Below are positions 11,522-16,923 of a DNA stretch of 64,000 nt, piece after piece. A program made the translations under genes and the position numbers. The notes under the pieces are model-generated. The model saw only the letters and a list, made by a program, of their open reading frames with translations, was not told where the DNA came from and made no database searches. This stretch comes from an uncultured Poribacteria bacterium. Lineage in GTDB: Bacteria; Poribacteria; WGA-4E; WGA-3G. Within the stretch, counting starts at the first letter, position 1; every line of letters starts with the position of its first letter. Where the stretch lies: the NCBI GenBank assembly GCA_951812525.1, contig OX638316.1:2784506-2848505 (forward strand), in the 5' to 3' direction.

Positions 11522-12379
11522 AAGACTATCCTGATTTTGGGTTTTGATATTCATTGCACCGCAACACCAAAAATACACTTACATTTTAACCTCAGAAACG
11601 AAAAAAGTCAAGGCTTTCCTGTAAGACGATTAAGGTCATTTGGTTTTCGGCAGTTGGCGGTTGATGGTTGGTAGATCGTCTGAATCAGGATTTGCAGGAT
11701 CAGCGCGCATGTGGTGAACCTTTAATTTCACAGTTTTCATAGTAAATAATAAAAAGTGTTGATTTCAAAAAAGGCTATGCGCACACGTGGTGACTGGGTT
11801 TTGGCGGTTTTGTCGGAAGATTGGTTACATAGTTACTATGAAAATTTCATAGGTGAAAGTACTGGTAAAGATACTGGTGAAGATACTGGTGAAGATACTG
11901 GTGAAGATACTGGTGAAGATACTGGTTTAAATGTAAAGCTAAGACAAATTTGGTTCTCGGCGTAAATCAACGTGCGCGTATAGCACTTGCGGCATTCTGC
12001 AGCGGACAATTTGGAAACATCGCCAGCACCACAAACTAACAGGAATCAACGCCGGATTTAGTCTGTGAATAGACTAAATTGCCCACACGCGGCAAAATTT
12101 GTCTTTGCTTTACATTTCCATTCCTTGTATTACATTTGCGCGTCTGGCATTTGGCGTGTGGTACAACACATGCATAAATGCGACTGCCTTTTTTTAGAGA
12201 TTGCCTTTGAATAGACGCCCTAAAAATTGCGTTTCACGGAGAATGTGTTTTTTATTCTTGCGAAGTCAATGGCTGCCTACTACGAGAAAATCCTCCGTGA
12301 AGCCTCCGTGAATTACAGAAAACTTAAGTCGGAACTGGAAACTCCTATTTTATGTGTTTAATTGAAATCAATTTAACCT
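11522..12379. repeat. Repeat-rich gene-poor gap
   Basis: About 860 bases without a convincing gene. It holds a 16-base end match (AAGGTCATTTGGTTTT, 11630-11645) to the 52-base dispersed repeat, an inverted CAGTTGGCGGTTG/GGATTTGCAGGAT element (11650-11702), a 12-base tandem repeat (11852-11923), and two copies of the AATTTGTCTTAGCTTTACATT box: 11929-11951 inverted and 12094-12118 direct. A weak open frame at 11756-11965 spans the tandem repeat and is not called. Confidence 0.65.
11852..11923. repeat. 12-bp tandem repeat, six units
   Basis: Unit GGTGAAGATACT; units 3-6 are identical and units 1-2 differ at one or two positions. It would encode TGED repeats in the plus frame. Slippage-prone sequence. 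Confidence 0.9.
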
Positions 12380-12660: not shown

Positions 12661-13161
12661 ATGCCACGAAAAAACAAAATCCTCAATATCGGCGATACCG
12701 CCCCGATATTCACACTCCCTTCGCATCAGCGGGAGGAAATTTCCCTTGAAACCTACCGCGACGCGCAAAATGTTGTTCTAACCTTCTTTCGCGGGACGTG
12801 GTGACCGAACAGCCGCCGCCAGTTGGTGACTGTGCAGGAGCATATTGACGCGTACGCAGAATGGACAGCAATCCCGCTTGCGATTGCAGGACAGTGGCCC
12901 CGTGAACTCCGTGGCTACGTCGAAAAAAACGGTATCACATTCCCGTTATTGGTAGACAAAACACGAGAGGTGATAAAAAGTTACGGTGTCTATCACTGGC
13001 TCAGTTTAGAGGCTTACAATATAGCACGTCCCGCAACGTTTGTCATTGACAGAACCGGGATTATTAGATATATGTATATCGGCTCACACCAATTCGATCT
13101 CGTCCAGCAGTCAGAAATCCTCGAATGCCTAAAAGAAATAGCGCAACCTCAAAAAAAATGA
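12661..13161 (+). CDS. Peroxiredoxin-like (AhpC/TSA) protein with in-frame UGA, probable selenoprotein
   Basis: Translating from ATG 12661 through a single in-frame TGA (12802-12804, codon 48) gives a continuous 166-residue AhpC/TSA thioredoxin-fold protein: IGDTAPIFTLPS and VVLTFFRGTW before the TGA, PNSRRQLVTVQEHI after it, then FPLLVDKTREVIKSYGV and RPATFVIDRTGIIRYMYIG. In relatives the residue after FxRGxW is the peroxidatic cysteine of CPxC, exactly where TGA stands, so selenocysteine is the natural reading. A small hairpin with loop AGTT (12821-12824) begins 16 bases after the TGA and could be a bacterial SECIS. The second cysteine of CPxC is serine here. The alternative is a nonsense-mutated pseudogene, but no other lesion is seen. 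It lies 68 bases before ribD. Confidence 0.7.
12802..12834 (+). promoter_or_regulatory. Candidate bacterial SECIS element with UGA codon
   Basis: TGA at 12802-12804. Downstream, CGCC (12817-12820) pairs with GGTG (12825-12828, one G-U) around loop AGTT, and ACAG (12809-12812) pairs with CTGT (12830-12833), with a bulge between. The loop has G in its first two bases and begins 16 bases after the UGA, which matches the published loose bacterial SECIS model. The stems are short. Confidence 0.5.
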
Positions 13162-13229: not shown

Positions 13230-14333
13230 ATGGACGAAGCACATAAAACCTTTATGAAACGCGCACTCGATTTGGCGCGTCGAGGAAGGGGGCGCACGAG
13301 TCCAAATCCGCTCGTGGGTGCCGTTATTGTAAAAGCCGGGCAGGTTGTCGGTGAGGGGTATCATCAGAAAGCAGGGACCCCACACGCCGAGATTCACGCC
13401 TTGAACGCCGCAGGTGAAAACGCTAAAGGCGCAACGCTTTACACGAATCTTGAACCTTGTTGCCATTGGGGGCGGACACCACCTTGCACAGAGGCTGTCC
13501 TTCAAGCGGACATTGCCCAAGTCTACGTCGCAGAAGTCGATCCGAACCCCAGTGTCGCAGGCAAGGGTATCCGTCAATTGCAAGAGGCGGGGATTCGCGT
13601 TCATGTCGGTATATGTGCTGAAGAAGCTGCACAGTTAAATGAAATCCACAGGAGATATATTCAAACCGGCAGACCCTTCGTAATCCTAAAAACCGCCATG
13701 AGCCTTGATGGAAAAATTGCCACTGCATCGGGTGAATCGCAATGGATTACCTCTGAAGCATCGCGGCAGTGTGGACATGAAATTCGAGACACAGTAGATG
13801 CTATCCTCGTCGGTAGTGGAACAGTTGTACGTGATGATCCGGCCTTAACAACACGGCTTAGGAATAGAGACGGACAGGATGCAACCCGTATTGTGTTAGA
13901 TTCATACGGAAGAACATCTACAGAAGCACGCATTTTCAATCCGGAGAGTAGGGCTAATGTTATAATTGCTGTGACACCGAACGCACCGATGCAAAACATC
14001 GACGCTCTCGAAAAGGTGGGTGCCGAAGTGATAACTGTTCCAGAGGTGCATGGCAAGGTCAGTATTAAGCACTTGATGGAGATATTAGGCGAACGTGAGA
14101 TAACGAGTGTCCTGATAGAGGGTGGTGGAGAAATAAACGCCTCTGCGGTAGCAGCAGGAGTCATCGATAAGGTTATGTGTTTTGTCGCACCTAAACTCAT
14201 CGGTGGACGGAATGCACCGGGACCTATTGGTGGCGATGGCGTTCCCAGTTTAAGTGATGTGCCACACTTGCAGCGCATCAGTATTACGCCGATCCCTGAT
14301 TCTGATGATTTTCTAATCGAGGGGTATCTGTAG
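13230..14333 (+). CDS. ribD: Bifunctional riboflavin biosynthesis deaminase/reductase RibD
   Basis: Two fused domains convert 2,5-diamino-6-ribosylamino-4-pyrimidinone 5'-phosphate by deamination and side-chain reduction. Residues 1-145 are the zinc deaminase with H52-A-E54 and the PCCHWGRTPPC zinc motif. Residues 148-367 are the reductase (MSLDGKIATASGESQWI, GSGTVVRDDPALT, LIEGGGEINA, KLIGG). Length is normal. An upstream TATACT (13186-13191) may be the promoter; I see no FMN riboswitch in the 68-base spacer. It is first in a riboflavin cluster and ends one base before ribE starts. Confidence 0.96.
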   Translation: MDEAHKTFMKRALDLARRGRGRTSPNPLVGAVIVKAGQVVGEGYHQKAGTPHAEIHALNAAGENAKGATLYTNLEPCCHWGRTPPCTEAVLQADIAQVYVAEVDPNPSVAGKGIRQLQEAGIRVHVGICAEEAAQLNEIHRRYIQTGRPFVILKTAMSLDGKIATASGESQWITSEASRQCGHEIRDTVDAILVGSGTVVRDDPALTTRLRNRDGQDATRIVLDSYGRTSTEARIFNPESRANVIIAVTPNAPMQNIDALEKVGAEVITVPEVHGKVSIKHLMEILGEREITSVLIEGGGEINASAVAAGVIDKVMCFVAPKLIGGRNAPGPIGGDGVPSLSDVPHLQRISITPIPDSDDFLIEGYL

Positions 14334-14334
14334 T

Positions 14335-15006
14335 ATGTTTACCGGTATCGTCGAAGAACTTGGAACAATTAAAAGTATCCAACGCAAATCCCAAGGGAGC
14401 ACCGTCGAAATTCAGGCGCGTGAAGTTCTCACAGATGCCAAAGTCGGTGATAGTATTTCTGTTGATGGTGCTTGTCTCACAATCGTTTCTCGGACACCGG
14501 AGGTGTTTACCTCGGATATATCCGCTGAAACGCTACGTCGTACAACGTTAGGGGAACGGAAGGTCGGTGAGCAGGTTAACTTAGAACGTCCTCTCCGACT
14601 CAGCGACAGATTGAGTGGACATCTCGTACTCGGACACGTGGATGAGGTCGCGACGATCTGTTCTTGGAAAGACGAAGGCGATGCCTCTTTGATGCAGGTA
14701 ACGATGAGCGACAATGCCAGACGCTACATCACATACAAAGGGTCTGTCACCGTTGACGGTATCAGTTTAACGGTGTCAGGTATTTATGCAGATTCCTTTG
14801 AAGTCGCTTTGATTCCGCATACAAAGGAAGTCACAACCTTAGGAACCAAACGGAATGGTGCCAGAGTCAACCTCGAAGTCGATCTTATTGCGCGCTATCT
14901 TGAGACCCTTCTCAAAAATAGTGATACGGAGACGGCTTGGACTGAACAACCGCGTTCCGAAACACTCAATTTAAGTTTTTTAGCGAAACACGGCTATATT
15001 GATTAA
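14335..15006 (+). CDS. ribE: Riboflavin synthase, alpha chain
   Basis: Dismutates two molecules of 6,7-dimethyl-8-ribityllumazine to riboflavin. The 223-residue protein starts with the invariant MFTGIVEELG and contains two lumazine-binding barrels: residues 1-95 with SISVDGACLTIV and residues 98-195 with GHLVLGHVDEVA and GSVTVDGISLTV. The duplicated SVDGACLT/TVDGISLT motif is diagnostic. It starts two bases after the ribD stop codon, indicating translational coupling. Confidence 0.96.
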   Translation: MFTGIVEELGTIKSIQRKSQGSTVEIQAREVLTDAKVGDSISVDGACLTIVSRTPEVFTSDISAETLRRTTLGERKVGEQVNLERPLRLSDRLSGHLVLGHVDEVATICSWKDEGDASLMQVTMSDNARRYITYKGSVTVDGISLTVSGIYADSFEVALIPHTKEVTTLGTKRNGARVNLEVDLIARYLETLLKNSDTETAWTEQPRSETLNLSFLAKHGYID

Positions 15007-15092
15007 GTGTACAAGTGAAGTTTTTAAATCTCGTCAATTTAAAGGGCGCGTTTTCCAAGCGCACCAGCAGGAAAGTAGGGCGGTAGGCAAGA

Positions 15093-16325
15093 ATGTCAAA
15101 CACATTTAATACGATTCCTGAAGCACTCGCTGCAATCCGAAACGGGGAATTGATTGTCGTCGTTGATGAACCTGACCGTGAAAACGAAGGCGACCTCATC
15201 ATGGCGGCTGAAAAGGTGACGGCGGAGACTATCAATTTCATGGCAAAATATGGGCGTGGATTGATATGTCTACCTACCTGTTCTGAGCGACTTACCGAGC
15301 TTGAACTTTACCCTATGGTGGCATCGAACACCGCGCAGATGCAAACCGCCTTCACTGTCACAATCGACGCGAAAGAAGTCACCACAGGTATCTCCGCCCA
15401 AGAGCGCGCATATACGATCCGCAAATTTATTGATCCAAACGCCACACCTTCAGACTTTGTGCGACCCGGACACATTTTTCCGTTAGAGGCTAAACCCGGC
15501 GGGGTCCTCAGACGCGCTGGGCATACGGAAGCCACTGTTGATTTGGCATGCATGGCAGGACTCTATCCCGCAGGTGTACTCTGTGAAATCCTCAATGAGG
15601 ATGGAAGTATGGCACGGGTCCCCGAGTTAATGGAGTTCGCTGCGCAACACCAACTTAAGATTATTACCGTTTCCGATCTCATCGCATACCGCCGTCAGAC
15701 AGAAACCCTCATTAGACGCGTCGCAACCGCTGATATTCCAACCGCACACGGCGAATTCAAACTTTACGCCTACGAAAGCACTGATACTGAGGGTGAGAGC
15801 GTTGAAGCAGATAAAACGCATATCGCACTCACAAAAGGCGATATTGCCGACGCAACCCCAATCTTAGTCCGCGTCCATTCACAATGCCTCACCGGAGATG
15901 TCTTTGGTTCGCTCAGGTGTGATTGTGGCGAGCAGCTCGAAATTGCCCTGCAAACAATTGAGGAGGAAGGCAGAGGGGTGCTCGTCTATATGCGACAAGA
16001 AGGCAGAGGGATGGGACTTAAAGGAAAGCTTCGCGCATACCAATTACAAGACAATGATGGTTTAGACACCGTCGAAGCCAATGAACACCTCGGGTTCCCT
16101 GCCGACCTCCGAGATTACGGCATCGGCGCACAAATACTCGCTGACCTCGGTGTTCGTAAAATGCGACTGATGACAAACAACCCACAAAAGGTTAAAGGAT
16201 TAGACGGACACGGACTCGAAATCGTCGAACGCGTCCCCTTACAAACCGAGCCGAATCCGTTTAACCGCCGATATTTACAGACAAAACGTTCCAAACTTGG
16301 ACACCTCCTCTTGGACGAGGAATAA
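15093..16325 (+). CDS. ribBA: Bifunctional 3,4-dihydroxy-2-butanone 4-phosphate synthase / GTP cyclohydrolase II
   Basis: Provides both precursors of riboflavin. Residues 1-205 are the DHBP synthase ([31 protein letters not shown]). Residues 210-410 are GTP cyclohydrolase II with zinc cysteines in [18 protein letters not shown], the arginine-rich [14 protein letters not shown] catalytic loop and [11 protein letters not shown]. Both halves keep their catalytic motifs. An 86-base gap from ribE holds no obvious regulator. Confidence 0.97.
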
Positions 16326-16437
16326 ATGATATGAGGAATAGCGTCAGCAATCAGTAATCAGAAGTGCTTGTGGCAGAGGCAAAAGTCTTACATGCCATTA
16401 CCTCTGACCCCTGATAGCTGATAGCCATAGAAAACTT
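16326..16437. repeat. Spacer with imperfect inverted element
   Basis: Contains CAGCAATCAGTAATCAGAAG and, 45 bases later, CCTCTGACCCCTGATAGCTG, which look like arms of a degenerate dispersed element (ACAGAGGCAAAAG/CCATTACCTCTGACC type). It separates ribBA from ribH. Confidence 0.4.
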
Positions 16438-16923
16438 ATGCCAAACGTCTACGAAGGACATCTCCTCGGTGAGGGTCTCACATTCGGAATCGTTGTGAGT
16501 CGATTTAATAGTTTTGTTACCGAAAAACTCCTTGCCGGTGCACTCGATGCCCTAAAACGACACGGAGTTGACTTGGATGAGGTTGATGTTTTTTGGACAT
16601 CTGGTGCTTTTGAGATTCCCGGAGTTGCCAAACGCCTCGCCGGAAGTAACAAGTATGATGCTGTCCTCTGCTTAGGTGCTGTCATCCGAGGCGCAACACC
16701 TCACTTTGACTACGTTGCCGCCGAGAGTGCAAAGGGAATTGCCCAAGCATCCGTCAGCGCAGACACACCCGTCATCTATGGGGTTATCACTACGGACACA
16801 ATAGAACAGGCACTTGAACGCTCTGGGATAAAGGCAGGAAACAAAGGCTTTGAAGCCGCTGTCGCTGGTATTGAGACAGCCAATCTCTATAAAACAATTG
16901 GCAAAGCCTTAAATGACAACTAA
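16438..16923 (+). CDS. ribH: 6,7-dimethyl-8-ribityllumazine synthase
   Basis: Condenses the ribBA and ribD products into lumazine, the penultimate step of riboflavin synthesis; the family assembles as 60-mer capsids or pentamers. The 161-residue protein has [17 protein letters not shown], the substrate loop [24 protein letters not shown] with the catalytic histidine, and [17 protein letters not shown]. All family motifs are intact. No ribosome site is obvious. Confidence 0.96.

What the first reader, a model, noticed from the sequence alone, without database searches (positions are those of the whole stretch)
12661..13161. Peroxiredoxin with UGA at the peroxidatic position, likely selenoprotein
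The single in-frame TGA (codon 48) replaces the cysteine of the FxRGxW-C-PxC motif, with intact family sequence on both sides. A short stem-loop with an AGTT loop starts 16 bases after it, as a bacterial SECIS should. The resolving-type second cysteine is serine. If real, it indicates selenocysteine use in this lineage and a one-selenium mechanism.
Basis: partly seen in the sequence, partly recalled or inferred. Interest (0 to 1): 0.75.

Follow-up and report, generated by a model that had tools for sequence, protein, structure and literature searches.

The report
Selenium-containing peroxiredoxin-fold protein of Poribacteria
This gene of a sponge-associated Poribacteria bacterium almost certainly makes a small selenium-containing redox protein shaped like a peroxiredoxin, but its selenium sits in the thioredoxin-type position and it has none of the peroxiredoxin catalytic residues, so it is a new variant of a known kind of protein.

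Summary
Window 12661-13161 is one gene with an in-frame TGA at codon 48 (12802-12804). The TGA is present in all 64 distinct, gap-free orthologue sequences compared and in 66 of 67 orthologues in a search of 85 Poribacteria genomes; the exception has TGT (Cys). Selection is equally strong before and after it. The complete genome carries selA, selB, selD (itself with a TGA) and tRNA-Sec with a UCA anticodon. Codon choice after the TGA favours a stem with an AGUU loop 16 nt downstream, fitting the bacterial SECIS model, although pairwise covariation is not significant.

The interpretation needs correcting. The protein has the peroxiredoxin fold (AF2 model, closest AhpE/Bcp), but Sec48 is not at the peroxidatic position. 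It replaces the Thr of PxxxTxxC; the peroxidatic Cys position is Ser51, and the Prx Pro and Arg are Arg44 and Pro124. It is a thioredoxin-type UxxS site, with no Cys conserved throughout. Most likely it is a monoselenol thiol-dependent reductase or peroxidase using external thiols. Published lists give TxxU, UxxC/UxxU and UGC for PF00578 and UxxS only for the related PF13911, so this is a new variant of a known kind, fixed across most of one Poribacteria order.

The parts
12661..13161 (+). Coding sequence of the 166-residue Prx-fold selenoprotein (TGA at codon 48 read as Sec; normal stop TGA 13159-13161)
   Evidence: ungapped orthologues; dN/dS 0.094 before and 0.079 after the TGA
12790..12822 (+). 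Active-site stretch RGTW-U-PNSRRQ (codons 44-54)
   Evidence: invariant in 64 unique orthologues
12802..12804 (+). TGA (Sec) codon 48, in the position of the first Cys of a thioredoxin CxxC / the Thr of Prx TxxC
   Evidence: one natural TGT (Cys) orthologue L122
12811..12813 (+). Ser51 codon: occupies the peroxidatic-Cys position of peroxiredoxins (second Cys of CxxC)
   Evidence: alignment; Ser in 64/64
12815..12830 (+). Putative SECIS apical stem-loop: 6+6 nt stem around an AGTT loop (12821-12824), 16 nt between TGA and loop
   Evidence: codon-constrained nulls; CAG 64/64 and TTR only at codons 54-55; covariation not significant
12892..12897 (+). Gln78-Trp79 codons: invariant, in the loop after a strand of the model; possible GPx-like helper residues (hypothesis)
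   Evidence: 64/64; secondary structure; Gln kept in Armatimonadota and Chloroflexi Cys homologues
13030..13032 (+). Pro124 codon: thioredoxin-type cis-Pro position, where peroxiredoxins have the catalytic Arg
   Evidence: alignment to AhpE; 64/64 Pro
13230..14333 (+). ribD-like riboflavin gene, next gene downstream in most relatives; possibly co-transcribed, not part of the site
   Evidence: sequence, synteny in 45 of 57 loci

Best explanation
The gene encodes a Prx-fold ('Prx-like') selenoprotein. UGA codon 48 is decoded as selenocysteine by SelB/tRNA-Sec with a SECIS hairpin just downstream (inferred from sequence, about 97% likely). Sec48 sits at the start of the first active-site helix in the thioredoxin-type nucleophile position of a UxxS site, with Ser51 where peroxiredoxins have their peroxidatic Cys and Pro124 where they have Arg (shown by alignment). 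Most likely the selenolate attacks a peroxide or an oxidised thiol, and because no Cys is conserved throughout the orthologues, the selenenic acid or selenosulfide is resolved by external thiols (a low-molecular-weight thiol or a thioredoxin-type partner). That is a one-selenium cycle like GPx (UxxT) or monothiol glutaredoxin (CxxS). The substrate is unknown; I put a hydroperoxide at about 50% and mixed or low-molecular-weight disulfides at about 35%. The stated confidence is for identity and register (selenoprotein, UxxS thioredoxin-type site), not for the substrate.
For: Sec decoding: selB 336 bits, tRNA-Sec 78.1 bits with a TCA anticodon adjacent to selB, selA 594 bits, selD 358 bits with its own TGA. 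Conservation: TGA in 64/64 unique ungapped orthologues and 66/67 in the phylum; equal purifying selection on both sides. Cys homologues at the column: L122 TGT, Armatimonadota and Chloroflexi CxxC. TGA is not reassigned: the same gene and relatives end in TGA, TAA or TAG. SECIS: mean stem pairs 5.17 of 6 against 3.60 +/- 0.11 under synonymous resampling; AG-loop stems 21/64 against 4.9 +/- 2.0. Register: ungapped alignments. Fold: pLDDT 88, best PDB hits Bcp4 and AhpE. No conserved Cys: 36 of 64 have none in residues 1-160; the rest almost all have one at residue 156. Class rules (Prx = cxxC with Arg at the cis-Pro position; GPx and monothiol Grx = Cxxc): PMC2757866.
Against: No protein or selenium data exist here. 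Pairwise covariation in the SECIS stem does not exceed shuffles, and 15 of 64 sequences fail a strict 4-bp contiguous bSECIS rule. The synonymous nulls treat related sequences as independent. The catalytic cycle and substrate are inferred only.
Confidence: 0.85

Rival explanations
1. A true 1-Cys-type peroxiredoxin in which Sec is the peroxidatic residue.
For: Prx fold, AhpE-like 1-Cys relatives are the nearest structures; Sec-Prx of TxxU type exist, including a two-domain one in this genome (L005/L006).
Against: U48 aligns without gaps to Thr of TxxC, S51 to Cp, P124 to the Prx Arg and R44 to the Prx Pro; all are invariant in 64 orthologues.
Confidence: 0.05
2. A monoselenol thiol transferase or disulfide reductase (deglutathionylation-like) rather than a peroxidase, working like monothiol glutaredoxin.
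For: UxxS matches the CxxS class, typified by monothiol Grx (PMC2757866); thioredoxin-like cis-Pro124; UxxC paralogues are called Prx-like thiol:disulfide oxidoreductases (PMC13188914).
Against: No partner or substrate evidence; the Prx/GPx-type insertion in the fold is more usual in peroxidases and CcmG/ResA-type proteins.
Confidence: 0.35
3. The TGA is a real stop, a pseudogene lesion or an assembly error.
For: TGA is a stop codon elsewhere in this genome, including the end of this gene.
Against: Same TGA in 66/67 orthologues from independent assemblies, downstream dN/dS 0.079, full Sec machinery.
Confidence: 0.01
4. TGA is read as another amino acid by readthrough or code change (e.g. Trp or Cys).
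For: None found beyond the in-frame TGA.
Against: TGA terminates this gene and its relatives interchangeably with TAA and TAG; Cys or Sec occupies the column in homologues; tRNA-Sec with a UCA anticodon is present.
Confidence: 0.02

Closest known systems
Prx-like thiol:disulfide oxidoreductase selenoproteins (PF00578, UxxC/UxxU)
   Same: Same Pfam domain, same Sec position (thioredoxin first-Cys register), FxRGxW-U-P motif; UxxC paralogues are in this genome
   Different: Second Cys is Ser in every orthologue (UxxS), no Cys conserved throughout, specific GQWPRE motif
AhpC/TSA (PF13911, cd02970) UxxS selenoprotein reported from the Olavius algarvensis symbiont
   Same: UxxS motif in the AhpC/TSA superfamily (PMC9312934, PMC13188914)
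   Different: P0001 matches PF00578 at 5.5e-27 and not PF13911 at E<=0.1; 9 of 17 orthologues match PF13911 weakly (best 9e-4).
AhpE of Mycobacterium tuberculosis (1-Cys Prx)
   Same: Fold and length; among the nearest solved structures
   Different: AhpE has the Prx Pro, Thr, Cp and Arg; here Arg44, Sec48, Ser51 and Pro124 stand there
Glutathione peroxidase (UxxT)
   Same: Sec in the first-Cys position followed by xxT/S (PMC2757866)
   Different: Not matched by a GPx Pfam family; GPx catalytic Trp-Asn not identified
Sec peroxiredoxin (TxxU)
   Same: Same Pfam domain
   Different: Sec three residues further on, at Cp, with Prx Arg kept

Membership tests
Bacterial selenoprotein | In-frame TGA with conserved coding sequence on both sides | tested here: met
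Bacterial selenoprotein | Cys homologues align at the TGA | tested here: met
   L122 TGT orthologue; CxxC homologues L144-L147
Bacterial selenoprotein | selA, selB, selD and tRNA-Sec in the genome | tested here: met
[quoted passage not shown]
   window: CGCC-AGTT-GGTG at spacing 16; -12.3 kcal/mol over 48 nt. Across 64: 49 meet the contiguous-stem rule against a null of 30 +/- 3.3; covariation not significant
Bacterial selenoprotein | Selenium incorporation shown experimentally | not testable with these tools
   needs 75Se or mass spectrometry
Peroxiredoxin (catalytic) | AhpC-TSA domain and Prx fold | tested here: met
Peroxiredoxin (catalytic) | Peroxidatic Cys or Sec in PxxxT/SxxC | tested here: not met
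   Ser51 at Cp, Sec48 at Thr, Arg44 at Pro
Peroxiredoxin (catalytic) | Conserved active-site Arg | tested here: not met
   Pro124 aligns with AhpE R116, Pro in 64/64
Prx-like UxxC/UxxU selenoproteins (PF00578) | PF00578 domain with Sec in the first-Cys position | tested here: met
Prx-like UxxC/UxxU selenoproteins (PF00578) | Cys or Sec at the +3 position | tested here: not met
   Ser51 in 64/64
AhpC/TSA PF13911 UxxS selenoprotein | UxxS motif | tested here: met
AhpC/TSA PF13911 UxxS selenoprotein | PF13911 as the best domain | tested here: not met
   absent for P0001 at E<=0.1; weak in 9 of 17 orthologues
Glutathione peroxidase | GPx domain match | tested here: not met
   no GPx family among the Pfam hits
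Glutathione peroxidase | Sec-Gln-Trp-Asn catalytic tetrad | tested here: inconclusive
   Gln78-Trp79 invariant in the loop after a strand, but no coordinates were available to measure distances

The most novel reading that the evidence does not exclude
A separate line of monoselenol peroxidases has evolved on the Prx-like scaffold: Sec at the thioredoxin/GPx nucleophile position with Ser at +3, helped by the invariant Gln78-Trp79, giving a GPx-like mechanism without a GPx-family gene, and kept by most of a Poribacteria order of sponge-associated bacteria.
Probability: 0.3. Interest if true: 0.55.

Novelty: new variant of a known kind. Interest (0 to 1): 0.42.

Why it matters
It documents a phylum-level Sec trait in Poribacteria; the open-access text search found no paper naming selenoproteins together with Poribacteria. 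It adds a UxxS subfamily to PF00578, where published lists have TxxU, UxxC/UxxU and UGC. It is a clean natural test of what a lone selenol can do in a Prx fold stripped of all Prx catalytic residues. The single natural Sec-to-Cys orthologue with an intact SECIS-like stem offers a ready comparison. A standard ORF caller cuts this gene at the TGA or starts it at 12823 (TTG).

Tried and rejected
Rfam scan of the window: no match; ARAGORN found no tRNA in the window, so the machinery had to be sought in the genome. Covariation test of the SECIS stem was not significant, so structure support rests on codon choice and energy. Poribacteria plus selenoprotein literature: none; 'selenocysteine' plus 'Poribacteria' gave a sponge-bin paper noting SelA/SelB enrichment in symbionts of various phyla (PMC5649159). 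The original UxxS paper (NAR 2007) was not held. Considered and rejected: pseudogene, assembly error, code reassignment, peroxidatic-Sec Prx. A riboflavin-linked function was considered because of ribD adjacency, but family f4 loci lack the neighbour within 3 kb, so it is not used as evidence.

Full report
What is there. Window 12661-13161 (+) is a 166-codon frame with one internal TGA at codon 48 (12802-12804), read as MPRKNKILNIGD...FFRGTW-U-PNSRRQL.... It matches AhpC-TSA over residues 10-138 (E 5.5e-27). The window lies in a 5.06-Mb single-contig genome at C1:2784506-2848505. Named orthologues place the lineage in Candidatus Poribacteria.

Is the TGA real and translated? In a search of 85 Poribacteria genomes, 67 have an orthologue of at least 186 bits; 66 carry one in-frame TGA and one has none. 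Sixty-four unique sequences align without gaps over codons 1-160, with TGA at codon 48 in every one and no other stop. Median dN/dS is 0.094 before and 0.079 after the TGA. The one exception, L122, has TGT with the AGTT stem still intact at 6/6 pairs. Its genome keeps selB. In the phylum search the only orthologue without a TGA is in G064, which from its size and position I take to be the same genome; its genus-mate G063 has the TGA. So this is most simply a recent Sec-to-Cys change, or possibly a base error. The ends of the orthologues vary between TGA, TAA and TAG, so TGA is not reassigned.

Machinery. The genome has selB (336 bits, over cut-off), tRNA-Sec (78.1 bits, cut-off 47) with a TCA anticodon next to selB, selA (594 bits) and selD (358 bits, itself with TGA in CAG-U-ASK). 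selB is found in 53 of 60 relatives. Of the 45 genomes with orthologues, 42 have selB, and the three without are 81-83% complete. Two family-f6 genomes lack both selB and any match to this protein.

SECIS. [quoted passage not shown] The window has CGCC-AGTT-GGTG at spacing 16. Across orthologues, codon 54 is CAG in 64/64, Leu55 is only TTG/TTA, Ser51 only AGC/AGT, and Arg52-53 almost only CGY. Synonymous resampling gives 3.60 +/- 0.11 stem pairs against 5.17 observed, and -4.4 +/- 0.34 against -7.7 kcal/mol. AG-loop stems at 16-18 nt occur in 21/64 against 4.9 +/- 2.0. Two cautions: related sequences are not independent, and covariation counts do not exceed shuffles.

What kind of protein. The AF2 model (pLDDT 88.4) is nearest to Bcp4 and AhpE. 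The ungapped register is decisive: FFRGTWUPNSRRQL aligns with FYPLAFSPVCAEQV (the genome's own Cys Prx, L004) and FYPKDFTGGUTAEL (its Sec Prx, L006), and the same offset appears against AhpE. So R44, U48, S51 and P124 stand where Prx has Pro, Thr, Cp and Arg. In the thioredoxin-fold atlas, Prx is the cxxC class with Arg at the cis-Pro position, while GPx and monothiol glutaredoxins are the Cxxc class (PMC2757866). The protein therefore belongs functionally with the latter. Thirty-six of 64 orthologues have no Cys at all in residues 1-160; nearly all others have a single one at residue 156, so an intramolecular partner is not conserved. Nearest homologues outside the phylum are CxxC (L144-L147).

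Mechanism (inferred). Sec48 is the nucleophile; external thiols resolve it. A peroxide is the likeliest oxidant, and a disulfide transferase role is the main rival. Gln78 is invariant and kept in the Armatimonadota and Chloroflexi Cys homologues but not in the UxxC paralogues. Its place in the loop after a strand recalls the GPx Gln (recalled from general knowledge, not tested). That is a hypothesis only.

Known or new. Published tables list PF00578 selenoproteins with TxxU, UxxC/UxxU and UGC, and a UxxS AhpC/TSA protein under PF13911/cd02970 (PMC9312934, PMC13188914). By those authors' own rule, same domain with a different Sec motif means a different subfamily, so this is a new variant. Weak PF13911 hits in some orthologues leave open a link to the published UxxS protein, which I could not retrieve.

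Noticed in passing
L006:1501 onward (G000:C1:844747-845625): One open frame holds two tandem Prx domains, each with its own in-frame TGA at the peroxidatic position (FTGGU and FGRGU): a double-Sec two-domain peroxiredoxin with a leader-like N-terminus.
   Followed up: partly
L002, L003 (G000:C1:791149-791541, 397876-398319): Two further Prx-like selenoproteins with UxxC (FFRGVWUPFC and FYRTGTUGNC).
   Followed up: partly
L163 (G000:C1:1603115-1603447): A redoxin-domain protein with SWUGCREQ, i.e. a UGC-type Prx-like selenoprotein, in a longer multi-domain frame. In all, 6 of the genome's 13 AhpC-TSA matches contain an in-frame TGA.
   Followed up: partly
L122 (G060): Natural Sec-to-Cys orthologue (TGT) with intact SECIS-like stem in a genome that keeps selB.
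   Followed up: partly
window 11857-11925: Short tandem array of a 12-bp unit (GATACTGGTGAA-like) in the gap upstream of the gene.
   Followed up: no
window 13230-16923: Riboflavin cluster (ribD, ribE, ribBA, ribH by sequence likeness) directly downstream; the selenoprotein gene precedes ribD/ribE in 45 of 57 relatives' loci but not in family f4.
   Followed up: partly
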